Virus record (IMG/VR): IMGVR_UViG_3300047299_000127
Location: 1 to 56,894 of that record
Direction: 5' to 3' (one strand)
Length of the DNA stretch: 56,894 nucleotides
Origin: a virus
Position 1 is the stretch's first letter. Every line of letters starts with the position of its first letter. The notes under the pieces are model-generated. The model ran no database searches and was not told the origin of the DNA. It was given only the letters and a program-made list of their open reading frames with translations. The position numbers and the translations under genes were made by a program. Below are positions 5,426-52,811 of this stretch, piece by piece.

Positions 5426-5920
5426 CTATCGGTCCTCATTCACTGCGCGCTCGGCGGCTTGGTATCGGGCTTGGCACTGGGCAAGCTCGACTCGGATGAG
5501 ATCGGCTCGGGCAGCTTCCCCGACAAGAAAAGCAGCATCCGGTCGGTAAAGCTGGACTCCAGTACAGCCTGAGGCACTGGGTCCAGGCTGGGCAGGCGCG
5601 GCGGCTTGACTGGGGGCATCGGCTGGGCGGTCGGGGCGCTGGCGCAGGCTGTCAAGAGCAGCATCACGCTGGCGAGTAAGGCGAGCAATCTCACGGTGTT
5701 TCTCCTGTCGGTCTTGGTCTGCCTGGCGCTGAAGGGTTTGTTCACGGGCACGGGCGCGGGCTTGTTCGTCGGCATGGGCCCTGGCGGTCTTGGCGCGCTC
5801 CTGGTCCCACATCTGAGCCACCTCGGCGCGCCCATCGCTGCGGCCCACCACGTAGCACTTCCAGGCACCGGCCAGCAATACCAGGATGGCCACGATCACG
5901 GCAACGATGCGCACGCTCAT
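5426..5920 (-). CDS. Rz: Inner-membrane spanin (Rz-like)
   Basis: 164 residues from the ATG at 5920, which overlaps the endolysin stop (ATGA); a longer frame upstream is antisense-like and rejected. Residues about 4-20 form one N-terminal membrane anchor (VAVIVAILVLLAGAW). A long charged periplasmic coiled coil rich in Arg, Gln, Glu and Ala follows, the hallmark of Rz i-spanins. With the nested Rz1 it would fuse inner and outer membranes in the last lysis step. Confidence 0.85.
   Translation of the reverse strand: MSVRIVAVIVAILVLLAGAWKCYVVGRSDGRAEVAQMWDQERAKTARAHADEQARARAREQTLQRQADQDRQEKHREIARLTRQRDAALDSLRQRPDRPADAPSQAAAPAQPGPSASGCTGVQLYRPDAAFLVGEAARADLIRVELAQCQARYQAAERAVNEDR
5440..5694 (-). 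CDS. Rz1: Outer-membrane spanin lipoprotein (Rz1-like), nested in Rz
   Basis: 84 residues in a different frame wholly inside the Rz gene. It begins at GTG 5694 with AGGAGA 6 nt upstream. The N-terminus (VRLLALLASVMLLLTAC) is a lipoprotein signal with lipobox L-T-A-C, Cys17 being the lipidated residue. The mature part is proline-rich (APTAQPMPPVKPPRLPSL), as in Rz1 proteins. Complete nesting of Rz1 in Rz is known from lambda. Confidence 0.85.
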   Translation of the reverse strand: MRLLALLASVMLLLTACASAPTAQPMPPVKPPRLPSLDPVPQAVLESSFTDRMLLFLSGKLPEPISSESSLPSAKPDTKPPSAQ

Positions 5921-6390
5921 GGCCGGGCACCCTCGCCCATGCACTGGGCGTATTCGGACTGGCGGCGGATGGTCAGGCCGCGCAGCGGCTGGCCCTTGAA
6001 CCTGTCCCATCGCAAGATCTGGCGGCAGGCGTCCTCGTACTGCTCCTGGTTGAGCAGGCGCACCAGCGTGGAGGCACAAAAGGCGGATGAGCCGATGTTG
6101 TAGGCCAGGCTCACATAGGCGTCATATTCGTGCTGGTGCAAGGGCACGCGCACACACTGACGGATCGCGCCCTCGAACTTCTGCACATCGGACAGCTTGC
6201 GTGCCAGGGCTTTGGGTGGCGTGGTTCGGTCGCCCAGCTTCACGCCATCGGTCGTGCCAAAGCCAAGCGTGGGCACATCGCCCGGTACCGGGATGATGGC
6301 CTGATCGGTGTAGCCCTCCTTGAGCGCAATGCCCACCAGGGCGGCGGCGCTCAAGACCAGGCTGGCAATGCTGGCGCGCCGGATGCTCAT
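5917..6390 (-). CDS. SAR-type endolysin, lysozyme GH24 family
   Basis: 157 residues, a muramidase that cuts peptidoglycan. The N-terminal weakly hydrophobic, Ala/Gly-rich segment (about 6-22) fits a signal-arrest-release anchor. It is followed at once by the catalytic Glu25 (KEGY) and the PTLGFGTTDG motif carrying the active-site Thr41. Cysteines at several positions could serve disulfide switching. Lysis then depends on membrane depolarisation by the holin. It overlaps both neighbours by 4 bp (ATGA), giving the order holin, endolysin, spanins. Confidence 0.87.
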   Translation of the reverse strand: MSIRRASIASLVLSAAALVGIALKEGYTDQAIIPVPGDVPTLGFGTTDGVKLGDRTTPPKALARKLSDVQKFEGAIRQCVRVPLHQHEYDAYVSLAYNIGSSAFCASTLVRLLNQEQYEDACRQILRWDRFKGQPLRGLTIRRQSEYAQCMGEGARP

Positions 6391-16068: not shown

Positions 16069-16305
16069 ATGTCTGAAAACTTTTGGTGGCAGGCAGCCGC
16101 GCTCTTTTGGGCGGCTGTCTGCTTCTTCCGGGTGGGCGCGATGACAAAGGGCATTGCGATGAACCGCCGCACGTGGCTTGAGATCGGGCAGGCAGCGTTC
16201 ATCGTTGTGGTCCTCTTCGCCTTACTTACCGAGGGCCGTGGCTGTCGCAGTGCGGGCACGTCGAGCCTTGAGCCCGCCTCGTGCGTTGGGGATGCGCAGT
16301 GCTGA
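16069..16305 (+). CDS. Possible small membrane protein
   Basis: 78 residues on the strand opposite its surroundings, with GGGGG 6-10 nt before the ATG. Two hydrophobic segments (FWWQAAALFWAAVCFF, about 5-20; IGQAAFIVVVLFALL, about 39-53) separated by a basic stretch look like a two-pass membrane protein. It fills the 169-bp gap between two leftward genes but overlaps the end of the Cro-like gene antisense by 84 bp. No promoter is evident. Confidence 0.35.
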   Translation: MSENFWWQAAALFWAAVCFFRVGAMTKGIAMNRRTWLEIGQAAFIVVVLFALLTEGRGCRSAGTSSLEPASCVGDAQC

Positions 16306-16497
16306 TGTCCGCTTGTCGTGCTTCTCAAACCAGTCGAGCAGCGGCTGCACGGTGTCCAGGCGTGGCGAGCACTGGCCCGCATGGATGCGGCTTACGGTGG
16401 CCTGTGGCACCCCGCTCTCCTTAGCGATGCGGTTGTGCTGGCCAGCGAGTTCAGACAAGCGCCTGCGGAGGTAGTCGTAGATCGGTTCTTTGTTCAT
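16222..16497 (-). CDS. Cro-like helix-turn-helix regulator
   Basis: 91 residues with GGGGG before the ATG. The N-terminal half is an Xre-type helix-turn-helix (NRIAKESGVPQATVSRIHAG). The C-terminus is basic and probably disordered. It starts divergently from the CI-like repressor across a 75-bp region with paired operators, and its own promoter contains one of them, the arrangement of cro in lambdoid switches. It heads the leftward early/replication operon. Confidence 0.75.
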   Translation of the reverse strand: MNKEPIYDYLRRRLSELAGQHNRIAKESGVPQATVSRIHAGQCSPRLDTVQPLLDWFEKHDKRTSALRIPNARGGLKARRARTATATALGK

Positions 16498-16506
16498 GGC
16501 CCCCTG

Positions 16507-16548
16507 AGTGTATCCGTATCCGGATATTTAATCAACCACATCCGGATA
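16507..16548 (-). promoter_or_regulatory. Leftward early promoter with paired operators
   Basis: On the minus strand, TTGATT (16530-16535) and TACACT (16507-16512) are separated by 17 bp. The operator TATCCGTATCCGGATA (16511-16526) overlaps the -10 and spacer. A second copy CAACCACATCCGGATA (16533-16548) starts 22 bp further, two helical turns away. Repressor bound here would shut the leftward early operon. The distal copy overlaps the -35. Confidence 0.75.
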
Positions 16549-16572: not shown

Positions 16573-17055
16573 ATGGAATCTCTACGACAACGACTTGCCC
16601 GCTTGATGCGGGAACTGATGGGCACAACGCTCGTGGACACACAGACCAAGGTGTCCGCGAAGGCGGGTGTGTCGCAATCCACAGTTCAGCGGCTGCTGTC
16701 GCTGGAACAGGCCGCGACCGTGGACCTCTTGGAGTCGTTGGCCAAAGCGTTTGGCGTCAAAAATGCGCAGTACCTGCTGCTTGAGCGTGAGGAAGCAAAA
16801 CTCTTATCACTTTGGTCGGGTCTCAATGCCGAGGACCGGCAGACCGTTCTGGGCTTTATTCAGATGAAGGCCCAGGTCAAACCCGTGCACGATCTACCAG
16901 CGCAACTCAGCTTCGATTCCGGCACGCCGGTGTCGCCCGAGTTGCGCGCTGCGTCGAAGCGGGCATCGGTGAGGAAGCCGGGAACAGACTCCCTGAGCAA
17001 CCAATCAGATGACAAGGCAAGATCCACCACACCACGCGCACGGCGCAAGGCTTGA
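16573..17055 (+). CDS. CI-like repressor, no peptidase domain
   Basis: 160 residues from the ATG at 16573; the ribosome site is weak (GGAA), as for many repressors. Residues about 25-65 form an Xre-type helix-turn-helix (KVSAKAGVSQSTVQRLLSLE). The rest is a helical middle (LWSGLNAEDRQTVLGFIQ) and a polar tail. There is no LexA/S24 autopeptidase motif, so induction must work without the classical cleavage. It faces the Cro-like gene across paired operators and is the natural binder of the TATCCG-N4-CGGATA sites genome-wide. Which of the two regulators binds which site is inferred. Confidence 0.7.
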   Translation: MESLRQRLARLMRELMGTTLVDTQTKVSAKAGVSQSTVQRLLSLEQAATVDLLESLAKAFGVKNAQYLLLEREEAKLLSLWSGLNAEDRQTVLGFIQMKAQVKPVHDLPAQLSFDSGTPVSPELRAASKRASVRKPGTDSLSNQSDDKARSTTPRARRKA

Positions 17056-17388: not shown

Positions 17389-17422
17389 TATCCGTTGACG
17401 AATATCCGGATACGGATATACT
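17389..17422 (+). promoter_or_regulatory. Early rightward promoter 1 with two operators
   Basis: TTGACG (17395-17400) and TATACT (17417-17422) are 16 bp apart, a strong sigma-70 promoter. The operator TATCCGGATACGGATA (17403-17418) fills the spacer. A second, TATCCGTTGACGAATA (17389-17404), covers the -35. The leader that follows (TCAGGAACTT, then GGAGTCAGGAA) recurs after promoter 2 at 22.1 kb. Confidence 0.85.
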
Positions 17423-22726: not shown

Positions 22727-22956
22727 CGCTCATTCAACGCCAAGACCGCATCGTGCGCGCATTGGAAAGGATCTATCGGCGCGCCCGGCAAAACCCCGGC
22801 CAGCGCTCCAAGGCCGTGCGCCTGCTGATGGAGTTCAACGCCAAGCGCATGGCCTTCGCGGGCTATTCCGCCATCGAGGCCCGCGCCAGCTTCAACCAGT
22901 GCGCCGACATGGCGCGCCTCAACAGCATGTGCGGGCCTTCGCTCGCCCAGCAATAA
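22723..22956 (+). CDS. Early basic helical protein, unknown
   Basis: 77 residues, Arg-rich helices (RQDRIVRALERIYRRARQNP, SKAVRLLMEFNAKRM). It ends 2 bp into the operator before the YqaJ gene. Possibly nucleic-acid binding by charge. Confidence 0.5.
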   Translation: MTLIQRQDRIVRALERIYRRARQNPGQRSKAVRLLMEFNAKRMAFAGYSAIEARASFNQCADMARLNSMCGPSLAQQ

Positions 22957-22969
22957 CCGCATCCGGATT
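22954..22969. promoter_or_regulatory. Operator TAACCG-CATC-CGGATT before the recombination genes
   Basis: This 16-bp site is two bases from the perfect form and shares the CAATAACCGCATCCGGAT context of the 17962 site. It lies 29 bp before the YqaJ start. A promoter is not clear around it. Confidence 0.5.
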
Positions 22970-30015: not shown

Positions 30016-33000
30016 TCACTTCACCTTCTCGGCCAGGTCTCGCATGATCTTGGTCTTTTTCTGGACCTCGACCTGCACGGCCTCCTGGAACTCATCTTGG
30101 GAGATCCGGTTGGTCTGACGCTGGCGCTTGAGTTGGGCGATGTTCTTCTCGACCTCAGCGATCTCGGCCTGGGCCTTGGCGTTGAGGTTGCGGCGCAGAA
30201 CGTCAGCCGGGTAGCTGCCCAGCTTCACCCCGAAGGATGAAGCCACGGCCTGGGCCACCGACATTTCACGCCCAAACGGATCGGTGCGGCCCTGGGTGGC
30301 CTCCACCACGCCCGTGGTGGCGTAGGTGCCCGGCAGGCCCAGCACATTGGGCGCAAAGGCCTTGTACAGGTGATCGGCCACCTTCTCGGCCTTCTGCAAC
30401 GGGGTGTCGGTGTCCAGGGTAATCGGTTTTCCGGTGAATGCCGACTTGTTGAACACCACTTCGCCAAACAGCACCAGCGGACCGCCAGGCATCATGCCCG
30501 GCAGGACCGGCACGGCAGCTTGGCCAGCGCCCACGTCAAACACATCGCCTACCGGGATGAAGCGGCGGATGTCCAGATAGACCGGCGAGCCGTGCTGATC
30601 GTTCCAGGGCATGCGGATGAGCTTGGGCACCATGCCCCAGATCTTCCCGGCCTTCTCTTCGGGCAGCAGCTTGCGCTCTTCATCGTCGCCATCGCCACCG
30701 GCCAGCATGCCGCCCAGCGCGTTGAGCGCACCGGCCAGCATCATCAGCTTCATGAGCTTGTGCGGCTTCTTGCCCGCGATCTCGGCCAGCATGGGCACAG
30801 CGCGGTAGGTGAAACTGATGAACGGCCAGGCCGACTGGCGCATCGCCTGAATCCACGGGGCATTGATGTGGTAGTCCAGGAATGAGCGGCGCGAGGCCTT
30901 GCCTGCATCGATGTCGGTTGCGCCTTCTTCCTTGGCCTTGAGCCAGGCAGCCAGGCGGAAAACATCGTCCTCGGCCTGGTACAGGTCGATCAGGCTGCTT
31001 GCCTCGGTACCGATGGCCTTGCCGGGCTTAGATCCCTTGAAGGCCTCCCAGGCTGTCGGGAAACGCAGCATCAGCGCGTTTTGCAGCGCCGACATCACGC
31101 CCACCTCAGCCTGGGCGGACTGCGCACCAGTGGCGGCCAACTCCTGCTCCAGCTTGGCCAACAGGGGCTCCAGCTGGTCCTTGGCGATCTCGTTCGTCAC
31201 CCATGAACCCACATCACCGCCCGAGTCGGTGTAGCGGTTCAGGATCTCGCGGGCGGCCTCGCGGTCGGCAATCCCGGCCTTGGCCAACTGGTTGCCCAGG
31301 TTGCCCAGCGCGCCCTTACCCTCACGCTGGCTGGCGGCCAGGATCAGGCGCAGGGACTTGGCCACGTGAGCCGCGCCCACGTCATGCCAGTCGGCCATGA
31401 CGAAGTTGGACATGACGTTGTTCATGTGCACGGCAGGCGACAGTGCGGTCTTGGCGGTTTTCCACATGCTCAGGATCTGGGCATAGGTGTCACCGAAAGG
31501 CTTGAACTGGCCATTGACCACCTGGCGCAGGTCATTCCAGACCGGGCCAGGCAGGTAGCGGCCAGCGAGCTTGCCGTACTTGGCCACGTTGGTGCCGCCG
31601 ATCTTGGTGTCGGGCACGCGCACCCACTCGCCGGGCTTGAAGGTGTCGCGGTACCGCTCAGAGGCCTCCACCACCTCGCCGGGGATGGTCTCACCTTCTT
31701 TCATGGCGTAGCTGTGCGCCATCCACTCCAGATAGCGGCCCACCTCCACGTCATGGATCATGCCGTGCAGTGTCTTGGCGATGGCAAAGCGGGCCTCATC
31801 GATCTCGCCCATGGATTCGCGCTCGTCCTTGGTGAAGTCGCGCCAGAAGATGACGTTCTCGCCCTTAACGTCCCGCACCTCGAACGTGCCAGCCTTGGAC
31901 CATTCCGAGTACTGGCTCGGGATGGTTTCACCGGCTGGCCAGTACGCCACCTCCAGCAGCTTGCCCAGGGCCTTGCCTTCCATGCCTTCAAGCGGCTTGG
32001 TGCCCTCGCCCGATGCGGCGCGGCGCTCCAGGCGCACGAACTTCTCGCCCTTGAGACCTGCATCGGCCTTGCCCTTGACCAGCTTGCGGCCCCACCACTC
32101 GGGCGCTGTGTTCTTGAGCTTGGCCATGGTGGCGGCCTCGGTCAGGCCCCGGCCCTTGTACTGGTCGCCCAGGATGGAAATCACACGGGCGCGCTTGGCT
32201 TTCTCGCCAGCGGTCTGCTCCAGGATGTGCTTGGCGTAGCTGCGGCGCAGGTAAGCGAACTTGTTGGCCTCGTAAGCCTCTGGGCTCAGTTGGCCAAGTC
32301 GGACAGCCTCACGCGAGAGCTGATCGATCATCTTCTGCACGTCCTGCAACACCTTCACCGATTCCTCGGGCAGGCCTTGCATCATGGACACATAGGCCTT
32401 GGGGTCGGCACCGTCCATGTTCATCCACTCGTAGGCCACGCGAGACTCTTCGCGGGTCAGGGTGGAGAGCTTTTCGATCAACTCGCCAGCCTTGCGCAGT
32501 TGGACACGCTGGCGGCCTTGCAGCAGCACGCGCTGATCGATCACCGCCTGGGGCACGCCATAGTCGGCAACCACGCCCGCCTTGATGGTCTCGGGGGTGT
32601 AGCGGTCCAGCAGGTAGCCCGCCCGGTCGTAGATCGCGCCGGTCAGGCGCTCGATGCCGGTGATCCGGGTCAAGCCCTTGGCCAAGGCATCCAGCGGGGC
32701 GCGGCTGCCTGCTTTCTGGCTCAGGATCTCGTCGGCGCGCTCGCGGGCATCCTTGCGGCGCGAAAGCATCACGCCACCCTCTGCCGGGTTCTTTTCGCGC
32801 CACTTGGCGGCCAAGCGCTCAAACAGCGGGTAGTCCTTGGCCAACATGTCCTCGACATCAGCAAAGCCTCGGGCGCGGGCCTCGGTTTGCAGCCACTTCT
32901 CCTGGCGCTCGATGTCATCCTTGAGGGTTGTGGACAGGCGGGTGTCGCCCATGTACCCCACTCGGCGCTCGGGGCTCTTGCCCGCCACGTACTCGCGGGC

Positions 33001-36000
33001 ACCGCGCACCAGTTCAGCGACAAACAGGTCGGCACGCTGCTGCTGGGTCAAACTGCCTTCCAGCAAGTCGCTGAGTTTGTTGGCCAGGTTCGTGAAACCA
33101 TGCTCCAGCAACCAGTCGCGCACCATGACCGTGACCTTGCGCCAGCCCTTGAGCTTGGCCAGTTGGGCGGTCGGGATGTCCACAATAGCCTCTTCCACGG
33201 CCTCGGCAGTGGACATCTTGTTGCCGCGCTTCTGAATGTCGAAGGCTGCCCGGCGCACGTTGGCGTTGTTGGCGTACACCAGCGCCATGGCGGTCTTGAG
33301 GCTATCGCCCAGCAAGGCGCGCAGGCCATAGTGAGCGGCCTCATGCTCAAGCAGCACGTGCTCTGCGCGGTTCATGTCAGAAAGACCTGATGCGAACAGG
33401 TACAGCGCGCCCTCGTGGAATGCGCCTTCAACGTCATCCCAGGCGTCCTGGCGGATGATGTACTCGCGCAGGCCCTTGGGTGCTTTGCTTGGATCTGCCA
33501 GCACCGTCACCTTGGGCATGTTGGGCATCTTGGCCTTGACGCCGCGCACCATGGCATCCAGGGCATCGACGCTCACGCTGCCAGAGGCTGCGCCAGCGCC
33601 GCGAGCCAGTCGGGTGTCCTCGGCGGGCTTGACCTCTGACGCCTCGGTGGCCATCCAGTCCTCGGCAGCCCCGCCATTGGTAGAGACTGCCTTGGTGATG
33701 GCCTCATCGGCGCTGGTGGCCTGCACATCGAAGCCCAGGCCAGAGGCCTTGTTTTCCACGCGCCAGGTCTTGGGCTTGGAATCGAGCGCGATCATGGTTT
33801 CCAGATCGTTGGCTTCCTTCACCTTGTCGGCCAGCATGCCAGCCATGGGGAAGGGCGACTCCAAACGGCTGGCCAGCGCATCGATCTGGGCCTTGGCCTC
33901 GGTGATGCGCTCGCGCATCTTGGCGGGCAGGCGTGCCACATCCGCCACCGCGTTTTGCGCACGCATGGCCACGCCGATGGCGCTGGTACCGGCGTCAGCG
34001 ATCAGCAGCAGGGGGTCAGGCGTGCCCAGCATCACCTTGGTCATGAACTGGCCTGCAACGGTCTCGCCGCCGAAAACGACAGGGAAACCGGAGATCTCGC
34101 CAATGGTCATGGGCTTGGTCTCGCCCTTGGCGGTCAGGTCCTTGTACTTGGCGATCAGGACTTCGGCCCAGTCGGCGCGCTCGGCCAGGGTCTTGCCCAT
34201 GACCTTGGCGCGGAACTTGTCGCCAGACAGGTCCTGCACCATGGCGGCCATCTTCTCGGCCTCGGGCATGCGCTTTTCGTTGAACTCCACGGTTGTGCGC
34301 GCCATGTCGTACTGGGACTTGAAGCGGGCGCGCTGGTCCTCGTGGGCGCGGTACAGGCGCTGGAGTTTTTCGATCTCGGCGCGAGCCCCTGCCAGTTGCA
34401 GGATGCGCGGATCTTCGGCCACCATGGCAGCGGCCAGGTCGTACTGGCTTTGGCTGTCCAGATCCTCCAACTCGCGCAGGTTCGCGTCACCGCTCAAGGC
34501 CTGATCGATGAAGAACTGTTTGGATGCGAGCATCTTCCACATGTTCTCGTCGTAAGTGCCCTTGGCGGCGTAGGCGTACAGCTGCACCAGCGGGTTCTTG
34601 TTGCCCTGGCGCACGATGCGGCCTTCGCGCTGCTCCAGGTCAGCCGGGTACCACGGCGAATCCAGGTGGAACAGGGCTTTGAGGCGTTGCTGTGCGTTCA
34701 CGCCCGTGCCCATGTTCTTGCTGGAGCCCACCAGCAGGCGCACCCGGCCAGCGTTCACGTCCTTGAACAGCTTGAGCTTGTCCGCCGACTTCTTGTAGTC
34801 GGACATGAAAGCCACCTGATTCATGGGCACACCAGCATCGCGCAAGCGCTTCTCGAACCAGGCGCGTGCATTGAAGCCGCGATTGGCGGCCACGCCCTCC
34901 CCAAAGCCCAGGTCAGAAAACACCATCGTGGCCGCGCCCTTGTTGGGCTCGACGTTGCCCGCCTTGTCTCGGTACTCCATGTCCTTGGTCTCATCCAGGA
35001 CACGAATCACGTCATCGATCATGCGGTTGAGCTTGGAGTCCGGGTCACTGGGCAGTGTCGGGTCCATGAAACGCATGTCGATGGCCGCCAGGCGGCCATC
35101 GCCAATGATGCGGATCATCGGGTCAGGGTTGTTCGGCTCGTCCTTGGTCGGCTTCCAGGCGCGGGACTTCTCCACACGGGCAGAGAGTTCAGACTGGTAC
35201 CCGTCGTAGGCCTCGGTCTTGGGCGTGACGATGATCCTGCGAGATCCACCCTCCACTTTCGGGCGCTTGTCGCCCAGCAGTGCGGCCAAGGTGTCCGAGG
35301 TCAAAACGTCCGCATACTCGCGGAACATCTGGGTCAACTCGGGCACGTTCACAAACTTGCTGAACCGGGTCACGGGCTCATACTTGCCAGCGGCATTGGG
35401 CTCCAGCACCGTGCGCTCGCGCCCGAACATCGAGGCCCAGGAATCGAAGTCCTCAATGCCGCGATCTTCCAGGGCCTGGCGGTCCATGAACTTCTGCACC
35501 GTGTACAACTCGGCCAGGGTGTTGGTCACGGGCGTGCCCGATGCCAGGACCAGCGAGCGGCCCGGATTTTTCTGCTCCAGGTAGCGGGCCTTCATGAACA
35601 GGTCAAAGGAACGGGCAGAGCCTTGCGGGCTGATGCCCTTGACCTGGCGCGAAGTCGTGAAATCGAGCTTGCGGAACTCGTGGGCCTCGTCCACGTAGAG
35701 CATGTCCACGCCCAACTCATCGAATCGGACGTTGGTGTCCTTGCCGGTCGATGCCATGGCAGCTTCCAGCTTTTGCTCCATGTTCTCGATCTGCTTTTCG
35801 ATCTGCTTGATGCGTGGGGACTTCTTGCCGCCCTTGCCATCCTCGGCCTCGGCCTCTTCTAGGGCAGCGCGCATGTAGTCCAGCTGCTCCTCGATCATCT
35901 GGCGCTTGAATTCGGGGTCCAGGTCCAGCAGCTTGAAAGCGCTGTGCGTGATGACCACGCCATCGAGGTCAGACAGAGCCACACGCGAGACAAAGCGGCG

Positions 36001-39000
36001 GCGGTTGTCGGTGTGGAAGTTCTTTTCGTCGGCCACCATCAGGCGGGCAGCCGGGTAAAGCATCTGCCACTCGTGCGCAAACTGCTTGAGCATGTGGTTG
36101 GGCACCACGATCATGGGCTTCTTGATGAGGCCAAGGCGCTTTTGCTCCATGGCCGAAATGACCATCTGGAAGGTCTTGCCCGAACCCACGGCGTGCGCCA
36201 GGTAGGTGTTGCCGCGCTGGATGATGCGCCAGGCCCCGCGCTTGACGTGATCGAACACGCTGAACGCCTTGGAGGTGCCCGGCAGCGTCAGGTGGCGACC
36301 GTCAAAGGATCGCGGCACCGTGGTGTTGAAGGTGTCGTTGTAGATCCGCACCAGGCTATCGGTGCGCTCGGCATCCTTCCAGATCCAGTTGCCGAAGGCC
36401 TCGCGCAGCGCTTCGAGCTTTTGGTTGGCGGCTTCGGTACCGGCAGCATCAAAGACCGTGGTCTTGTCCTTGCCGTAGCCCTGGCTCTTGGTGATGCGGA
36501 TGGGCCTGCCGGTCAGGGCATGCTCCATGATGTCCGTCACGTTGCGGTCAGCCGTGCCCCAGTCGGCGGTGGCCTGCATGGTCTTGCCGCCACTTGTCTC
36601 CTGAACAGACCATTGCTTGGTGCGCTCATTCCAGGACACCTCAGCACGCACACCGGCCAACTCGCGCAGGAATTGGCTGTACACAGCGCCGGGCACCCAG
36701 TTCATGCCAATGCCCACGTTGATCTGGCTCGGGGTCTTGGGCGCGGGCTGGGCAGCTTCCAGGGCGGCCACATTGCGCTCAAAGCGCTTGTCGGTCTTGG
36801 CAGCCGTGCGGGCTTCATCCAGTTTGCGCTTGACGTTGCCGCTCAAGTACTCGTCGGCAGTCACCCACCCAGCGGCAGGGTCCTCATAGATGGCAGAGCC
36901 CAGGGCCTCGATGGTCTCGGCCTCGGTCAACCCCACGCGCTGGGCGATCAGGGGAATGTCCACGTGCCCCACATCGTTGAGCGATGACAGCATCGCATCG
37001 ACGGGGGTGTTGACGCTGGCGGCATCGGGCTTGCCCAGCACGCGCTCGGTCAGGAAGGCGCTGGGCTTGATCTCGCCCGTGTCCTCGTTGATGGTCTCCA
37101 GCGCCGCGACCAGGGTGTAATCCGGGTCATCCTCCAGCTTGCGCAGCAGGGTGTAGACGCGCACCTGGGTTTCATCGGTGTAGGTCTCGCCCGTGTCCTC
37201 ATCGACCACCTTGGACTTGACGGACTTGAGCGTGAATTGGTTGATCTGGCCGTGCTTCTTGGTGAAGTCGGCATAGGCCTTTTGCAGCGCCTTGATGCTG
37301 GTTTCCCAATCGCCCTCGTTCAACTGGTCGTAGTGCGCCTGCTTGAGGGCATCGCGCAGCGGCACGAAGTCCTTGACCAGTTGCACATCGGCCTGCGAGC
37401 GCAGTTCCACGCGCTGGCCCACCCCACCCTCGCGCACCATCAGCGCGCCGGAGTCGCTGACGTAGTAGTTACCCTCTTTCTTGGCCTTGGGGTTGAAGTC
37501 GATCTCGCGGACCTTGGCCGCTTCGGCGGAAGATCCGCGCTCGGCGGTGTAGATGCCCTCGGGCAGGCGGTTGATCGCCTTGTCGAACAGGGCCTCGATG
37601 TCGCCATCGAGCGGCGCGACCGTGTATTCGCGGTCCTTGTACATGGAGCCCGCATCGGAGTGCGTGCCCAGCACCATGTCAGGGTTGGCCACGAAGTACT
37701 CGTTGATGTTGTAGTCGTTGCCGTTGACCTTGAGCGGCACCGACTTGCCCCAGGACTGCGCGCCCTCAAAGGTCTCGCCGGGCACTTTCTTGCGCAGGAA
37801 GATCACATCCGTGACCACCTCGGTACCGGCGTTTTGCTTGAAGGCGGTTTGCGGCAAGCGAATCGCGCCCACCAGGTCCGCCCGGTCGGCCAGGTACTGG
37901 CGCGCCTTGTCGTCGAGCTTGTCCATGGTGTAGCGGCTGGTGACGTACACCACCAGGCCGCCCGGCTTGGTGCGATCAATCGACTTGGCAAAGAAGTAGT
38001 CGTGCAGGCTGAATGCCCGCTTGGCGTACTCTGGATCGCTCAGGATCTTGGTGCCGGAGAACGGCGGGTTGCCGACCGACACGTCATAGAAGTTCTTGGG
38101 CAACTTGGAGTCCACGAACGACTCAACCAGGATGCGCTCGTCGGGAAACAGTTGCTTGAGGATTCGGCCCGTGAAGGAGTCGAACTCGATGCCGGTGTAG
38201 ATCGAGTTGGCGGCCATGGCGGCAGGCATGAGGCCTGGGAACACGCCAATGCCAGCGCCCGGCTCCAGGATGGCCCCACCCTTGAAACCCATGCGGTCCA
38301 AGGCGCGCCACATCGAGCGCACCACTTCCTTGCTGGTGTAGTGGGCGTACTGGGTCGAGCGTGAGGCCTCGGCCCATTCCTTCTCGGACATGGACGCCTT
38401 GAGGCGGTTGCGCAACTCCACCCACTTGCGCACGCTGGGCTCGGGCTTGGCCTTGTCCAGCATCTCGCGGGTGATGTTGCCCGCCGTGTACCAGGTCAAC
38501 TGCGGGTTGCGGTATTGCAGGACCCGGAAGGCAGGCGCGTACTCGCCATATCGGGCGTTTGTCAGGAACGGGCGATCACCCAGGGCGGCAATGGCCTCGT
38601 CGTAGTTGGTCAGTGCTTCGGCGGCCTTGTCCAGCTTGTCGCCAAACAGATTGTTGGCGATCTCAGACGCGCCCCAGCCAATGAACTTGGCCAGCTTCGC
38701 CTGCTCTTCACGGGTGGCCTGGCGGCCATCCTTCTCCAGCGACAGCAGCAGTTCAATGGCTTCGAGGTTCTGCTCGGCCTTCTTGAACCAGCTGCCCTCG
38801 TAGGTCAGGTCGGAGGCTGAGAAGGCGTAGTTTCGTCCGGACTTTGCGGGGATGTCCCGTCCTGCGGGAACTCCAGCATTTCGGCCAGCACGATCTCGCG
38901 GTTGAGGCTGCTTGCCGTTCGCATCCTGGCCGCGCACTCCATCGGCCCCAGCTTGTCCCACCCCTCCTTGATCCGCTGCGTTTGCGTCAGCGTCACCACC

Positions 39001-42000
39001 TGCGAAGAGATCTGATCCGCCAGGTCCTGGGCGTACTCGTTGAGTTGGCCGCTTGCCGCCAGGCTGCGATACAGCGCGGGTGCCTTCTCCTTGATCGCGT
39101 CCTTGACCAGCGTTATCGTTTGCATCTTGATCTCCAGGTTTCTCGCCAGTATATCCATTTCCGGATAATTGTGGTACAGTTGTGTCGAGAGGTGTTGAAA
39201 TGAGAATCCCAGACGAATTCCCGGACGGTTGCCGTTTCGTACCGACCTTCGGCGGTGACTGGTTTGTTGAATTCCCTGATGGCAGGGTGTTCAAACTGGC
39301 CGACGATGGCGTGTCGCTTGCCCCTGCACGCGAGCTACCGGCTGGCGGCATATCGGTCAGCGCTGATCCGGCTGGCTTCTTGGCCGCCGCTGCAAACGCT
39401 GCATCGTAGAACTCGGTCATCGACTGACCAATCTCGCGCCCAAGTGGTGATTCCTTGGGCGCTTCTCTTTGTGCCTCGTACAGCTTGTGACCCTGGCCCT
39501 CTTTGGCAGCCAGCATCTGCGGCACGTTGATCTGGATCTCACCGATCACGCCGTTAGGCATCACCACGTTGACCAGCACATCGGCATAGCCTCCGTAAAC
39601 CTGGCGATCTTCGGCGGGCAGTTCGCCGCCACTCCAGGTCATGGCAAATTCGCTGGTGCGGTTTTTTGGCTTGCGCAGGAGCTTGAATTCTTTTTCGATC
39701 TCGTCAAGCACCTGCTGGGCCTCGGCGTAAGACTGCACAACGATGGTTGATCGCAGCATGTCCTTCATGCCGCCAACATCGAAGTTTTCTTCAGTGACCA
39801 GCTTCTCCACAGACCGCTTCAATCCCTTGATGGGCGCGATCATTTGGCCGATGGCATTGGTGCGACCAGCGATGTCGATCACCTTCTGGTCATACTCTGC
39901 CTTCACATCCTCAGCCTTGCGAATGATTGGCGTCAGCATGCCCTCTGCGCGCTGACGCTCTTCATTCGTGATCGCAACGGCGGGGCGATCCTTGTAGTAC
40001 TTCTCGACGTAGCCATCGGCACGCTCAAGCACACCGGCATCCATGAAGGTGTCAACGCTGGGCGGGGTGAAGTTGTCCCGCTTCATGTCATACGGGCGGC
40101 CATCGATCATGGCGGCCTTGGGCTTGTCTGCCAGGTTGGCCAGCGCATCACCGAACAGGTCTTGCTGGCCCATGCGGGCCTCGGCAGCGGCAAACAGATC
40201 GTCCACACGCTGGGCCGACTCGCGGGCCATGGCCTGCTCGGCAGCCTTGCGGTACAGATCGGTGCCGATCTTGTTCCAGAAGGTCTTGAGCTTCGGATCG
40301 TTCTTGAGCGCCTGCTTGACGTAGGCCACCAGGTCCTTGAGGCTGTAACCCACTTCCTTGATACCGGCCTCCATCAGGCGGATCAGCGTGGGCATGAGGT
40401 CCGGGGTCTTTTCCGGGACCATCATCAAGCGTGTGTGCTTGGTGGCGATCATGGCCAGATCAGCCATGGCGTCCTTGAAGTCTTGGCGGGCCTGGGCACG
40501 CGCCTGGTCGGGCGCAGCACCCTCGGAGCGCTTGACACTCGGAAACTGGAAAGTGGCGGCCATCAGGTCACGGATGGGAGCGTCGAACTCGATCACCTTG
40601 ACCGGCTCATTCATGGCCAGAGCAGCCACCCACTGGTGATGCCCGTCCAGCACGTAGCCATCGGCAGAAGCCAGCACGGAGCGGTCAACGCCATCGCGCA
40701 CCTCTTTCCAGCGCTCGGCTTTCTTGCTTGAAAACTCGGCCTGGGTGGGCTTGAGGTCAGACGCAGAGCGCTCGACTGTCTTGTGCTCGATGCCCTTGCC
40801 TTGCAGGAACTGGATCAGCGCGCCGCGATGCTCGCCCTTGACCTGGGGCATTTCGGCGCGGGGAATGCCGATGGTGCCCGTGTCGGGCGGGAACATCACC
40901 CATTCGCTTTGCTCGCCTGCTTCGGTTGCGGCAGCGGCGCGGGCAGCCCCATCGCCTTGATCGCCGCCGCGATTGCCCGGCGCATCTTGGGATTGCTGTC
41001 CACTTGGCGCATCAGCTTGCGCACCTTCTCCAGGGTCTCGCCGCTGGGTGTCTTGGGCATTGTTGCCATCGTCGTTTCCTTGTGCAGATTTCAGGAGGTC
41101 GGCGCGTGCCGGTGCGGTGTCGGTGTCGCCAAAGATCGAGCCTTGGCTGGGGTCTCCAGCAGCTTCCAGGGCCTCGTAGTAGCGCTGCACGAACTCAGCA
41201 ATGCGGCGCGGGCTGCGGATGTTGTCGGCCAGCAGGGTCAGCAACTGGGCAGCCTCGGGCGAGTACTTCGCGCCCGTGAGGTCGCCTTGGCCAAGTTCGT
41301 CGGCCACGCTCCAGCCCTTTTCCTTGAGGGCGGACAGACCTTCAACGGCAGACAGCAGATCCGGCGCGATGTCGGCCTCGTACAGGGTCCCGGCCTGCAT
41401 GCGCTCGCGGGAGGCGGCAATGGTCGGGGCCACACGCACCAGCGCCTTGGTGACGTTGCGCAGGTTGTCATCCATGCTCTCGGTCATGCGGCGCAGCGTG
41501 GGCGAGTCGCCGTAGGCCTTGGCCAGCACGGCGTTTTGGATGCGGCGATAGCCGAACGTGGACAGGCGGCCATCGGACTCCACCATGTCCGACTGCTCAG
41601 TGATCGGCAGCATGGCCATGAACTGGCGGATGAAGTCGTAGGAGGTGGCAAAGTCACCGGCATCGTCGGGATTCAGCCCCTCCAGGGAAGCCAGGCGCTT
41701 GGAGTCCGACAGGGCCTGCTCGCTGGGGCTCATGCGCTGCACGGTCGAGGCGTTGGCCTGGCGTGCAAACTCGGCACGATTGACTTGTGTTGAGCGAACC
41801 CGCACCAACACAGGCTTTTCCATGGCATCGACGGATTCGGGTGTGATACCAAACTGGGCGGAGTTCTCGCGCAGCCAGGCCTTGTAGTCCTCGGCCTTCT
41901 GGCCATTGGCCTGATACACGCGCTTGAGGGCGATGGTGCGGGCGTTGCCCGACTCCACCAGGCCATCAGCGCCAACAATCGGCGCGCCAGTGGCAGCGTC

Positions 42001-43566
42001 AGCAGACAGGCCCAGGCGTGCTGGGTCGAGCTTTTGCACGATGCTGGAGACCTGCAACTCGCTGGCCGAACGGCTGCGGTCGCGGGGCTGCAACTCCTGG
42101 GGATACAGACTGTTGGGGCGCAGGCTCTCGTCGTGCGAAGTCACCAGGTCAGCGGCATTCATCAGAGCGTACTGGCCATCGAGCTTGACGCCTGCCTCGG
42201 TCGAGAAGCTGGTAGATGCGCCGGGCTGGGCCTTTGGCCAAGACTGGGCGATGCTGGCGCGCTCGCTGGCCAACTCCTGGGCTTTGGTGGCCAGTTCGGC
42301 GCGCTCCTGGTCGAAGGCGGGACCGTAGCCGTTCTCGGCGGTCAATTCCTGGGTGCGCTCGGCAATGCGCGAGATCTCACCATCGATCTCGCCCACACGG
42401 TCCAGGGCAGTGAGCGATACCGGCGTGCGCAGGGCTTTCTCGGCCTCGGTCGAGTCCCCTACCCCAACGGCTTCCACGCTGGTGGCGGTTCCTCGCGCTG
42501 GGGTTGCTCCATCGACTGGGCTTGCTGCGCCAGCAGGTCCTGGCGCTTGCGTTGTTTGACCTTGCGGGGTTTGTCCCTGGTCGGTTCCTTGCGTTGGGTC
42601 TTGCTCATTGATTCGATTGGGCAGTGCGTTGCGGGCAGCCGAATACGTGTTCATGCCGCCGCCCATACCGGCACCGGCCACCATGCCCTGGGCAGCGGCC
42701 TCGGCCACACCCTCGTCCCACGGCTTGCCCAATGCCAGGTTGGTGAACACCTGTTCTTGGGCGGACTGCGGCAGTTCCTCCAGCACGCCCTCTTTGAACG
42801 TGCCCTTGGCGATCTCTTTGCCAGCCTGCACCAAGCTCTGGCGCTGCGCGCCGCCCATGCCTGCAACGGCTGCGCCGACTTCGGCATCGCGGAAGCCAGG
42901 AATCTTGGACGTGACCAGGCTGATGGCCGCTGTGCCCAGGCCGCCAGCAACGGCGGAAGGGGCGGTATCGGTGTAGTCGCGGCCAGCCTGGCGGCCAGCC
43001 TCCTGGATGCTGCCTGCGGTCATCGCGCCTTCGGAGGCTGCGCCAATGCCTGTCAGCTTGGCGATGGTTGCGGGCTTGGCCAAGAAAGCGGCAGCCTCAG
43101 CGGTACCGGCCTTGATGCCAGCTGAGGCCAGCATCTTGGAGGCGGCAGCGCGCACGGCAGCAGCACCGCCCAACATCATTGGAGTGGACTCAACAATGGA
43201 GCCCACAGCGGCGCTGGGGTTCTGCACCAGGGCCTTGGTCGTGTCCACAAAGCCCTTGGCCCCAGCAACCTCACGATTGGCCTGCTGGCGCGGATCGCTG
43301 TAAAAGTCGCTCAGGATCTGCTTGGTTTGCTCTGGGTCGTAGCCAATGGCCCCCAGGCCCTTGCCCACCAGGTTGCCGGTGGCCAGATCTGCCAGGCCTA
43401 CGGCAGACTCTCCCAGCCCGACAACGCCTTTGGCCAGATCGATGCCGGAGTCGGCAATGGCCTCGCCCCAAGTGCGATCGCGCTGCTCTGGTTTTTTCTT
43501 CGACTGCTCTTGGTCCGGAACAAACCGACCACTAGACTCAGAATTTTCGTCCGGTACAAATGCCAT
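30016..43566 (-). CDS. Giant polyvalent ejection protein (4,516 residues)
   Basis: One uninterrupted frame taking a quarter of the genome. Domains by rough residue number: 1-330 Ala/Gly-rich, amphipathic, ejection-like; 455-640 ParB-like (SGNARTIAL near 539); 890-1010 a second ParB-like part ([10 protein letters not shown] near 975); 1185-1390 RelA/SpoT-like synthetase fold ([25 protein letters not shown]); 1390-1590 low-complexity linker; 1700-1920 N6-adenine methyltransferase (EPGAGIG, NPPF); 2440-3030 SNF2-type helicase ([19 protein letters not shown]); near 3409 a zincin motif HEAAH; 3700-4516 a C-terminal region with [12 protein letters not shown]. Such polyvalent proteins are injected with the DNA and counter host defence. 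Bcep22-like phages are known for a protein of this size. Its ribosome site lies in a hairpin. Confidence 0.85.
38805..39125 (-). CDS. Nested early gene inside the giant gene, unknown
   Basis: 106 residues in another frame on the same strand as the giant gene, lying in its linker-coding part (giant residues about 1480-1588). The ATG at 39125 has CTGGAG 7 nt upstream. The protein is well formed: [20 protein letters not shown], then helical segments with [15 protein letters not shown] and [12 protein letters not shown], and a Pro/Ser/Thr tail. A -10 box TATACT (39148-39153) with the phage operator lies just upstream. Function unknown; the operator suggests early lytic or derepressed expression. 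Confidence 0.6.
   Translation of the reverse strand: MQTITLVKDAIKEKAPALYRSLAASGQLNEYAQDLADQISSQVVTLTQTQRIKEGWDKLGPMECAARMRTASSLNREIVLAEMLEFPQDGTSPQSPDETTPSQPPT
39148..39167. promoter_or_regulatory. Operator and -10 box between the nested divergent genes
   Basis: TATCCATTTCCGGATA (39152-39167) is one base from the perfect operator. On the minus strand its end merges into TATACT (39148-39153), as at early promoter 1, where the same 20-base window matches at 18 positions. No good -35 is visible. A divergent plus-strand promoter may use GATAAT (39164-39169) or TACAGT (39175-39180). Confidence 0.7.
39200..39409 (+). CDS. Nested antisense gene inside the giant gene, unknown
   Basis: 69 residues on the strand opposite the giant gene; the ATG at 39200 has GAGAGG 8 nt upstream. 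The N-terminal half is a compact beta-rich sequence ([20 protein letters not shown], then [13 protein letters not shown]), repeating a FxPDG-type turn, and the C-terminal half is Ala/Gly-rich. It covers giant residues about 1387-1456, where the giant protein is low-complexity. Divergent from the 106-residue gene across the operator. Function unknown. Confidence 0.5.
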   Translation: MRIPDEFPDGCRFVPTFGGDWFVEFPDGRVFKLADDGVSLAPARELPAGGISVSADPAGFLAAAANAAS

Positions 43567-49552: not shown

Positions 49553-51135
49553 ACCGAGATCGAGATGTACTTGTTGACCGTATCGATGATGAAAAGGCCA
49601 TCGGTGCTGCGCACAACGCCGCGCACGGTTGCATTCTGGAACTCAGCAGATCCGTCCTTGGTGATTTGCCAGCCACTGGAGCCAGACACAAAGTTGTTGG
49701 ACTGGATGACGTTGCCGATCTTGGCGTTGGAGATCGAGCCATCAGCAATACGCGCCACGTTGATGTAGCCGTAGGTGATGGCCGCCGCATCGACGTTGAG
49801 CAGCTTGGCGTCCAAACTACCGGTCAGGATGCGGTCTGCGCTGATGTAGCCCGCATTGATCTTGCTGGCGTTGAGGTTGGCCACCTTGGCGTCATCGACC
49901 GCCAGGTTGGCGATCTTTGCGTTGGTGATGGTGCCGTTCTGGATGAAGGCATCGCTCATGTACACGCCCACCGGCACGTTCACGCCGTTGATCGTCACGG
50001 GCGTGGTGCGCACGATGAAGGGCATGGCCGGGGCCACGCCTGGGCCTTCAGGGCTGGCGATGTAGAACGAATCGGAGCGGATGGCGAAAGCACTGGTGGG
50101 TGTTGCGCCGTTGGCCGTGGATGCCAGGCCAAAGCCCGACACATAGCCGTTCACATCGGTCTTGACCGTGTACCTGGCAAAAAGCTGCCCAGTCTCGGAG
50201 ACCCGCACAGTCTGCTCGGTCTGGATCGCTGCCGTGTTGGAGTTGACCGTGGCGGCCAGGGTCTGGCGTGCCTGGGCCTCGGCAGTGTCGGCATTGGCCC
50301 GCGCTGTCGCCTCGGTCTGAATGGAAGCGGCCAAGTTCGCGTCCGCCGTATTCACAGCGGCGGTCAAGGTCGTGATCTGGCTGGCCAAGCTGGTGTCGGC
50401 ACCTTGGCGCGCAGTCTGCTCGGCCAGGATCGCCGCGCCGCGAGCGTTGGCCTCGGCCAGCAAGCGGGCGTTGACGCTACCCGCGCCGTTTCCGTCCACC
50501 AGGTTGATGCGCTCGGCCAGGGACTGGTAAAGTTGGCTCTCGGTGATCTCGCCAGTCAAGGCAGCAAGCAGCGTGGCCACATCTTGGCCAGTCACTGCCT
50601 CCAGGCCATTGGTGCCGCCAGCGGGTGCCACGCTCAACACCCCGTCATTGGTCTCCCACTTGATCCACAGCCGCCAGGTCGTGGCAGGATTGCTGGCCAG
50701 CGCCCAGATGGTCCCCGAGAACTGGCCAAGCTCGACTGCATTGTTGAACGTGGGCAGAGGCTGGCCAGCCGTGTGCGTCACGCCGTACAGGCGCGTGCGC
50801 AGGTGCCCGTGGCCCATCAAGTAGCCCGGTTGGTCATGCTCAATGAACACATGGCTTATCGCCGCGCTCACGGCAAAGCCCGTGGGGGTGGGTGGCGGGG
50901 TCAGGTCGGGCTCATCACCCTGGGCCACGGCGTCACCAGGCTCCAGCAGCGGAACACCTCCACCAGGCCGCCAGCCCTTGGCCAACTTGATGATGCCGTT
51001 CTCGATCAGGTCGCGCAGCGTCAGGCCTCGGTCCAGGGGGTTGCCCTGCTTACCGAGGTAGGTCATCAGCGTTTCGCGCACGCGCTGGGGAAAGTTCCCG
51101 GCTGATGGTGGCGGCAGATCGTTGCGGTTGGTCAT
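49549..51135 (-). CDS. Tail-tip/host-specificity protein with DUF1983
   Basis: 528 residues. The middle is a long Ala/Thr coiled region (LAEANARGAAILAEQTARQG, LASQITTLTAAVNTADAN). It is followed by the DUF1983 pattern of J-type tail proteins (YTVKTDVNGYVSGFGLAS, DSFYIASPEG, then DAFIQNGTITNAKIANLAVD). These proteins sit at the tail tip and contact the host. Overlaps both neighbours by 4 bp. Unusual in that a J-like end occurs with a podoviral head. Confidence 0.75.
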   Translation of the reverse strand: MTNRNDLPPPSAGNFPQRVRETLMTYLGKQGNPLDRGLTLRDLIENGIIKLAKGWRPGGGVPLLEPGDAVAQGDEPDLTPPPTPTGFAVSAAISHVFIEHDQPGYLMGHGHLRTRLYGVTHTAGQPLPTFNNAVELGQFSGTIWALASNPATTWRLWIKWETNDGVLSVAPAGGTNGLEAVTGQDVATLLAALTGEITESQLYQSLAERINLVDGNGAGSVNARLLAEANARGAAILAEQTARQGADTSLASQITTLTAAVNTADANLAASIQTEATARANADTAEAQARQTLAATVNSNTAAIQTEQTVRVSETGQLFARYTVKTDVNGYVSGFGLASTANGATPTSAFAIRSDSFYIASPEGPGVAPAMPFIVRTTPVTINGVNVPVGVYMSDAFIQNGTITNAKIANLAVDDAKVANLNASKINAGYISADRILTGSLDAKLLNVDAAAITYGYINVARIADGSISNAKIGNVIQSNNFVSGSSGWQITKDGSAEFQNATVRGVVRSTDGLFIIDTVNKYISISV

Positions 51136-52811
51136 GACTCGGCCAGTTCCTTCATGCTGGTGGCCAAGCTCGCCTCCTGCACTGGGGTGGCGCTCTCGAT
51201 CTCGATCTGCCAGTCAGGCGCAGCAAAGCCATCGGGCAACCGGAATCCATTGCGGTCGTTCACGGTGGCCGTGTAGCGCAAGCTGGTGGGGGTCGGCGCA
51301 GTCAGCAGGTCATTGACTGCCAACACCTGGGCCACCTGGTCGGCAGTCAGGCCCAAGGCATCGACGCGCAGCGTCACGGGGTAGGTGTCGGCCACCACCT
51401 CGGCGCAGTTGAAGCTGATGGCGCTGGGGGCCTGGTAGACCTTGCTCTTGAAGCGTGCAGTCAGGAACGTGACCCCGGCATCCCAGCGCTTGACGTTGGT
51501 CCCGTCCAGCACGTACAGCTGGTCCTGCAAGTCATCGAAGTGCATGCCCTCGTAGCCCGTATCCAGGAAGAACATCCCGGTCGGGTTCATCGGGTCGATC
51601 ACAAAGCCCTTGCGGCCCGTGCCATCGTCGTAGCTGCCAAAGTACAGGCCCTCGTACATCTGGCCGACCACGGTCGAGGGGCGCAGGGCCTGCCAGTCCT
51701 CGCGGGTCATGACGCCCGCCGTGAGGATCTTGGGACCGTTGGAGCCATACCAGCACAGGCCATCGTCAGAGGACCAGGCCACACCCGCGCCCATGCTCAC
51801 GACAGACTCGGCGCTCACGCAGGACTGGGGAAGCTCCAGCGGGGCCTGATCCATGGCGTCCGGGCTTGAGCCGCTGGCCAGCAGCGGGCGGCCCGTGGTC
51901 AACACCAGGATCGACTGGCCAAAGTGACCAATGGCCACCGGCTTGGAGTCGGGCGGCACCAGGTCATAGGCCGATGGCCAGGCGTAAGGGGTGTAGGGCT
52001 CGCACAGGCGCACAGCGTTGCCGCTGATGCCCGCTAGCATCCCGTTCCAAAGGGCAGTCAGGCCGTGCAGGTCAGCAGGCGGCATCGCCCAAGTGGCCGT
52101 GGGCAGTACTTCGCCCAGGTCCCGGTTGTCGTCGCTCGTGCTGGCCGTGCCCAGCGCAATCTCGCGCAGGAAGAAGAACTCGGTACCGCCAGAGGTGCCG
52201 GTCTGGGTGCGGTAAATCCGGATGCGGTTAATGCCGTAGTTGCCAGCAGGCACGGCAGCGAAACCGGACAAGCTCACAGTGGCATCGGTGGGGCGCACCA
52301 CCTCCACGCTCACGGGGCCTGGAGCGCTCTCCCAACCCCAGTCATTCACGTAGGTGTAGACGTAGTAGTAGGAGTTGTCCAAGCCGGTCCAAGATCCCGC
52401 ATTGACCGAAGCGATCAGCGCCGTGGCCGGTGCAGGCACACCCAGGGGGCGCGATGCAGTGGGGTAAGGTGCAGCGGCCAGCGCCAGGATGTTGTCCGTC
52501 ACCTTGGGCGCGCCATCGCCTGTGAAGAAGGTGCGCTCGGTCGTGTCCTCGGAATCAAAGCCGCGCACGGCATGCACGCGAGTGGTCCAACTGAGCCAGT
52601 AGCTGGCATCGCTGGCCACGTCCCGACCCATGCGGTAGATGGTCTTGCGCCCAGCGGGCACGCTGGCCACAGTCAGGGGCGTGCGCCAGGGGCGCAGATC
52701 TCCACGGCCAGGCTTTTGGTTGCGGCTGACCGTGCCCACGGTCTCGGGCAAGGCCTTGGGGTGCAGTGCGCGGTTTTCACCGCCGAATCCCAGATGACGA
52801 ATGCGCGCCAT
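51132..52811 (-). CDS. Large tail structural protein, stopper-like
   Basis: 559 residues, beta-rich with fibronectin-like stretches (YYYVYTYVNDWGWESAPGPV, GNYGINRIRIYRTQTG). The opening and middle (RHLGFGGENRALHPKALP, VLTTGRPLLASGSSPDAM) resemble tail tubular B-like proteins of podoviruses, which form the lower tail nozzle. It sits between the 103-residue gene and the J-like protein. Confidence 0.6.
   Translation of the reverse strand: MARIRHLGFGGENRALHPKALPETVGTVSRNQKPGRGDLRPWRTPLTVASVPAGRKTIYRMGRDVASDASYWLSWTTRVHAVRGFDSEDTTERTFFTGDGAPKVTDNILALAAAPYPTASRPLGVPAPATALIASVNAGSWTGLDNSYYYVYTYVNDWGWESAPGPVSVEVVRPTDATVSLSGFAAVPAGNYGINRIRIYRTQTGTSGGTEFFFLREIALGTASTSDDNRDLGEVLPTATWAMPPADLHGLTALWNGMLAGISGNAVRLCEPYTPYAWPSAYDLVPPDSKPVAIGHFGQSILVLTTGRPLLASGSSPDAMDQAPLELPQSCVSAESVVSMGAGVAWSSDDGLCWYGSNGPKILTAGVMTREDWQALRPSTVVGQMYEGLYFGSYDDGTGRKGFVIDPMNPTGMFFLDTGYEGMHFDDLQDQLYVLDGTNVKRWDAGVTFLTARFKSKVYQAPSAISFNCAEVVADTYPVTLRVDALGLTADQVAQVLAVNDLLTAPTPTSLRYTATVNDRNGFRLPDGFAAPDWQIEIESATPVQEASLATSMKELAES

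What the first reader, a model, noticed from the sequence alone, without database searches (positions are those of the whole stretch)
38805..39409. Operator-controlled divergent gene pair nested inside the giant polyvalent gene
Two small frames (106 residues, minus strand, different frame; 69 residues, plus strand) start back to back around a 16-bp operator. The operator is that of the early promoters, and merges into a -10 box in the same arrangement. Both have good ribosome sites. They lie exactly where the giant protein (residues about 1387-1588) turns into Gly/Ser/Asn/Pro low-complexity sequence between its RelA-like and methyltransferase domains. The likely reading is overprinting: an early pair under repressor control embedded in a late gene, with the linker sequence being the by-product. 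Transcription of either gene would also run with or against giant-gene mRNA, which could time its expression. What is seen: frames, ribosome sites, operator. What is inferred: expression and function.
Basis: partly seen in the sequence, partly recalled or inferred. Interest (0 to 1): 0.88.

Follow-up and report, generated by a model that had tools for sequence, protein, structure and literature searches.

The report
Two genes nested inside giant gene
Inside one very long phage gene for a multi-domain anti-restriction protein sit two smaller protein genes written in other reading frames, one of them an old, undescribed gene-within-a-gene found in the same place across many phages and several bacterial phyla, and in this phage's relatives the pair also carries the phage's own repressor site.

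Summary
A (38805-39125, minus, 106 aa) lies in frame +1 of the 4516-aa DarB-like gene (30016-43566). B (39200-39409, plus, 69 aa) is antisense. Between their starts lies an operator (39152-39167) matching the phage's lysogeny-switch operators. ORF length alone is not significant, but homology and substitution patterns are. A matches Pfam TnpV above cut-off. An iterative search seeded only with A recruits 78 of 23,855 six-frame ORFs from relatives; 62 of the 63 with a mapped methylase domain are in frame +1 upstream of it. In 20 independent pairs, substitutions inside A peak at A's wobble base, not the giant's (383/214/199 by giant codon position, against 940/637/2486 in the flank). Nested A occurs in Bcep22, BcepIL02, JC1, DC1, BcepMigl, Itty13, Klebsiella and Erwinia phages, and in Bacillota elements; the records I opened do not annotate it. 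B, with a TAnnnT hexamer exactly 19 nt before its start in 10 of 11 phages, occurs only in the window's clade. Three relatives share the operator type at the nested pair and elsewhere. Expression and function remain untested.

The parts
30016..43566 (-). giant DarB-like polyvalent gene, 4516 aa, uninterrupted; host frame of the nested pair
   Evidence: ddrB-ParB, Eco57I, SNF2, Helicase_C by Pfam; 67-68% DNA identity to DarB-like genes of Burkholderia phages
38805..39125 (-). gene A, 106 aa, frame +1 of the giant, TnpV-like; possible longer form from ATG 39158
   Evidence: Pfam PF14198 TnpV E=2.5e-7, 31.1 bits vs cut-off 27; conserved nested homologues; wobble pattern
39131..39135 (-). Shine-Dalgarno GGAGA of A
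   Evidence: sequence; duplex -7.1 kcal/mol
39148..39153 (-). -10-like box TATACT for A, overlapping the operator
   Evidence: sequence; GGATATACT/GGATATAGT kept in L014, L016, L028, L020, L013
39152..39167 (.). 16-bp operator TATCCATTTCCGGATA
   Evidence: matrix rank 6 in window, 0 in 20 Markov windows; relatives
39175..39180 (+). -10-like box TACAGT for B, 19 nt before the B start
   Evidence: TAnnnT at exactly 19 nt in 10 of 11 phages
39187..39193 (+). Shine-Dalgarno GAGAGGT of B
   Evidence: duplex -9.7 kcal/mol
39200..39409 (+). gene B, 69 aa, antisense to the giant, predicted four strands plus a helix
   Evidence: homologues in L014, L020, L017, L028, L019, L016, L013; AlphaFold2 pLDDT 91.3
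16573..17055 (+). Cro/CI-type repressor, HTH_3, likely owner of the operators
   Evidence: Pfam HTH_3 E=1e-7
16222..16497 (-). divergent cro-like gene (by position and by similarity to the cro-like genes of L218 and L219)
   Evidence: no Pfam hit; position and sequence
16511..16526 (.). operator between the divergent repressor and cro-like genes
17403..17418 (.). early operator merging into TATACT, same layout as at A

Best explanation
The window holds two genuine overprinted genes inside the linker of the giant gene. A is a TnpV-like four-helix protein gene in frame +1. It belongs with the methylase-helicase half of the polyvalent (DarB-like) protein and is inherited with it. In most relatives it would be made from its own Shine-Dalgarno site on the giant's mRNA (inferred). 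In this phage and its close relatives a second layer was added: an antisense partner B and a divergent control region with the phage's own lysogeny operator, so A and B could also be made early or on induction, when the repressor lets go (inferred). The low-complexity linker of the giant is what the A-coding DNA happens to read as in the giant's frame. The likeliest role of A is as a partner of the giant protein, for instance guarding or assisting the methylase-helicase before it is packed into the virion; I would put this role alone at about 0.3. Shown: the frames, homology, selection on the A frame, and the operator match. Inferred: expression, timing, partner role. The stated confidence is for two genuine nested genes with operator control, not for the partner role.
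For: A: Pfam TnpV above cut-off. Seeded only with A, an iterative HMM converges on 78 of 23,855 six-frame ORFs; of 63 with a mapped methylase anchor, 62 are +1 upstream of it and one (L139) is stand-alone. Unmapped recruits checked are also nested +1 in long open frames. No +2-frame ORF of 60 aa or more occurs at the same place in any locus. A Shine-Dalgarno of at least 4 nt precedes 77 of 86 nested starts (starts were chosen partly by that criterion). In 20 independent pairs, substitutions in A fall 383/214/199 on giant positions 1/2/3 against 940/637/2486 in the methylase flank; 18 of 20 pairs agree, p=4e-4. Shuffle-corrected similarity is higher in the nested frame (mean Z 6.4, against 1.9 giant and 1.3 for the third frame). 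A and methylase distances correlate (r=0.48, permutation maximum 0.12). B: homologues at the same antisense place, Z 15.7 against 8.2 in the giant frame, pLDDT 91, hexamer at fixed 19 nt. Operator.
Against: No transcript or peptide data. No full sigma-70 promoter. Openness of frame A alone is not significant. The third codon positions of B and the giant fall on the same base, so the codon-position test cannot separate them for B. Nothing here tests the partner role; fold searches of A gave no significant match.
Confidence: 0.8

Rival explanations
1. A and B are chance open frames of a GC-rich gene; only the giant is expressed.
For: The window has hundreds of such ORFs; with the giant's residues fixed, a frame as open as A arises in 76% of synonymous resamplings.
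Against: A matches a curated family; substitutions track A's wobble base; the similarity search finds A only at one place and frame; low-GC relatives have it too; stand-alone TnpV genes show no long frame across them.
Confidence: 0.04
2. A is reached by programmed frameshifting from the giant, giving an N-terminal giant-A fusion rather than a separate protein.
For: In the PBC5 record, orf33 runs in frame into A.
Against: The A frame is open for only a median of 23 codons upstream of its start, and a start codon with Shine-Dalgarno is kept. No slippery site was searched for. The PBC5 split may be a sequencing error or a real frameshift; relatives POI1126 and Atu_ph08 are intact.
Confidence: 0.07
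3. A is real but made only from the giant's late mRNA; the operator is a roadblock or decoy and B is not made.
For: No full promoter; most relatives with A lack B and the operator.
Against: The operator varies with the phage's own switch operators in relatives; the B hexamer is at a fixed 19 nt; B folds confidently.
Confidence: 0.18
4. A recent cassette (moron) inserted in frame into the giant gene.
For: TnpV-like genes also exist alone in Bacillota mobile elements; B and the operator are limited to one clade.
Against: Same frame and site in very diverse relatives, and A co-diverges with the methylase, so the nesting of A is old.
Confidence: 0.05

Closest known systems
TnpV family (Pfam PF14198; tnpV of Tn4451 and of C. 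difficile elements)
   Same: A matches above the curated cut-off over the last 80 of the model's 111 positions; 22 of 76 nested relatives match.
   Different: Described as an ordinary transposon gene, postulated to act in excision by likeness to lambda Xis (PMC3158075); here it is nested +1 in a polyvalent gene. 10 of 35 Bacillota TnpV loci examined are nested too.
Polyvalent / DarB-like antirestriction proteins (PMC5512222; P1 DarB)
   Same: The giant host gene is one: ddrB-ParB, methylase and SNF2 helicase domains.
   Different: A text search of the 2017 polyvalent-protein paper found no mention of TnpV, overlapping or frameshifted genes.
Nested overlapping phage genes such as Rz/Rz1
   Same: A whole gene inside another in a different frame, each with its own start.
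   Different: Here one same-strand and one antisense gene share one host gene, with a repressor operator between them, and A spans several phyla.
Lambdoid divergent repressor/cro control region
   Same: Operator in the gap between divergent starts, overlapping a -10 box.
   Different: Here the divergent genes are not regulators by homology and lie inside a late gene.

Membership tests
TnpV (PF14198) | score above the curated cut-off | tested here: met
   31.1 bits vs 27
TnpV (PF14198) | lies in a transposon as an ordinary stand-alone gene | tested here: not met
   nested in a phage giant gene; so A is filed as TnpV-like, a sequence relative
TnpV (PF14198) | role in excision | not tested
   only postulated in the literature
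Overprinted nested gene | complete frame wholly inside another uninterrupted frame | tested here: met
   same in relatives
Overprinted nested gene | selection acts on the nested frame | tested here: met
   A. B: only by similarity
Overprinted nested gene | translation shown | not testable with these tools
   no ribosome or peptide data
DarB-like polyvalent protein (giant) | methylase plus SNF2 helicase with ParB-like domain in one chain | tested here: met
DarB-like polyvalent protein (giant) | carried in the virion | not testable with these tools
   shown for the JC1 homologue gp69 by mass spectrometry (PMC9144972)
Repressor-controlled early promoter | operator of the phage's own switch | tested here: met
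Repressor-controlled early promoter | recognisable -35 and -10 boxes | tested here: inconclusive
   -10 boxes kept; no full sigma-70 match
Toxin-antitoxin pair | similarity to known toxins or antitoxins | tested here: not met
   no Pfam, PHROG or NCBIfam toxin match for A; no significant Pfam or PHROG match for B

The most novel reading that the evidence does not exclude
TnpV-like A is a hard-wired partner or safety catch of polyvalent methylase-helicase proteins: it is encoded inside the gene of the protein it serves, so it cannot be lost without damaging it. The nesting is old and crosses phyla. In this phage clade the pair gained a second, repressor-controlled early promoter and an antisense partner, so the small protein can appear before the giant.
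Probability: 0.3. Interest if true: 0.92.

Novelty: new variant of a known kind. Interest (0 to 1): 0.83.

Why it matters
Gene callers discard fully nested frames, so a small gene kept in many phages, and in elements of several phyla, has been missed inside some of the largest phage genes; apart from PBC5, it appears in none of the phage records opened here. It offers a clean natural system for overprinting, with stand-alone, N-terminally nested and fully nested states, and a possible handle on how anti-restriction proteins are controlled before they are packed. It also explains the odd low-complexity linkers of these proteins.

Tried and rejected
Frame length as evidence: rejected, because synonymous resampling gives frames as open as A in most GC-rich relatives. 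Codon-position test for B: not informative, because third positions coincide with the giant's. Raw alignment scores were misleading because giant linkers are low-complexity, so shuffle-corrected Z scores were used. Searches of A or B against phage and plasmid records by tblastn found nothing close; the IMG/VR and GTDB scans did. Fold searches of A gave no match better than E=1.6, the top viral one being an unnamed segment Q8W6J4_2; B gave only weak Sm-like matches, E of 0.2 and above. I first took JC1's features inside gp69 for promoters; they are annotated terminators.

Full report
WHAT IS THERE. The giant gene 30016-43566 (minus, 4516 aa) is uninterrupted and is DarB-like: ddrB-ParB, Eco57I methylase, SNF2 helicase, 67-68% DNA identity to DarB-like genes of Bcep22-type phages. 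Nested in it are A (38805-39125, minus, frame +1, 106 aa) and B (39200-39409, plus, 69 aa), with a 74-nt gap between starts that holds the operator at 39152-39167. Both have Shine-Dalgarno sites.

IS IT MORE THAN CHANCE. Frame length is not evidence: with the giant's residues fixed and codons resampled, a frame as open as A appears in 76% of trials. The decisive tests are evolutionary. A search seeded only with the window's A, against 23,855 six-frame ORFs of all fetched relatives, converged on 78 ORFs. Of 63 with a mapped methylase anchor, 62 are in frame +1 upstream of it; the exception, L139 (cyanobacterial), is stand-alone. Recruits without an anchor that I checked are nested +1 too. No +2-frame ORF of 60 aa or more lies there in any locus. 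In 20 independent pairs, substitutions inside A fall 383/214/199 on giant positions 1/2/3, position 1 being A's wobble base; in the methylase flank they fall 940/637/2486. A relaxed linker would give even counts. Between the window and L014 the giant's wobble base changed at 1 of 90 sites in A against 47 of 400 in the flank (p=7e-4).

HOW WIDE. Nested A is present in Bcep22 (L035), BcepIL02, DC1, BcepMigl, JC1, Itty13, Klebsiella SopranoGao, Erwinia PEp14, Vibrio VvAW1, Agrobacterium Atu_ph08, Ochrobactrum POI1126 and a Microcystis phage. The Bcep22, DC1 and BcepMigl labels for L035, L025 and L036 rest on contig lengths and on my knowledge of those genomes. The GenBank records opened here annotate only the giant at this place, PBC5 apart. 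Pfam TnpV itself is nested +1 in 10 of 35 Bacillota loci, in open frames of 870 aa or more; the other 25 are stand-alone, with the alternative frame under 100 aa. In Verrucomicrobia A sits in the N-terminal linker of a separate methylase gene, and in a cyanobacterium it stands alone just upstream of the methylase. This series suggests that the methylase frame grew upstream through an existing A; that direction is inference. A and methylase distances correlate across 75 loci (r=0.48, permutation maximum 0.12).

B AND THE OPERATOR. B homologues lie at the same antisense place in L014, L020, L017, L028, L019, L016 and L013, and weakly in L011, L012 and L018, always beside A. Similarity is higher in B's frame than in the giant's (mean Z 15.7 against 8.2; 42 of 45 pairs). 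A TAnnnT hexamer lies exactly 19 nt before the B start in nine phages, and in L019 if its TTG start is used; L018 differs. B is predicted with high confidence (pLDDT 91.3). The operator scores 6th in the window by a matrix that excludes it. In the records of L014, L020 and L013 the same operator type occurs both at the nested pair and elsewhere, and in L020 and L013 beside repressor/cro-like genes. No full sigma-70 promoter was found.

MECHANISM. Shown: two conserved nested frames, selection on A, a fitting operator. Inferred: A is made from its own start on the giant's mRNA everywhere, and in this clade also from an early, repressor-controlled start together with B. The role of A is unknown by homology. 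TnpV was postulated to act in excision (PMC3158075), which does not fit a methylase-linked position well. A partner of the giant methylase-helicase fits co-inheritance and nesting, but is untested.

KNOWN OR NEW. Nested phage genes are known, and so are TnpV and polyvalent proteins. The combination was not found in the papers searched, and a text search of the polyvalent-protein paper (PMC5512222) gave no mention. The library holds only open-licence papers, so absence there is not proof.

Noticed in passing
window 52215-52230 and 22954-22969: Operator-like sites scoring 18.0; the one at 52215 lies inside the gene 51132-52811.
   Followed up: no
L131, L136, L137, L152, L166, L017, L020, giant frame just upstream of or beside A: QLDLF-like motifs (QLDLF, QLNLF, QNDLF, QSNLF) resembling sliding-clamp binding motifs.
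   Followed up: no
L170 (phage PBC5 record AF448724), 5732-6309: orf33 runs in frame into A; its length (2185 aa) equals the model length of PHROG 938, which is named endolysin. The giant is split by a frameshift in this record, natural or sequencing error.
   Followed up: partly
L124 3647-3982: Cyanobacterial A stands alone, about 9 nt upstream of the methylase frame.
   Followed up: partly
L099, L100, L102, L116, L127, L134, L160, L163: Methylase-bearing long frames in which no nested A was found near the domain; A may be absent, further upstream or too divergent.
   Followed up: no
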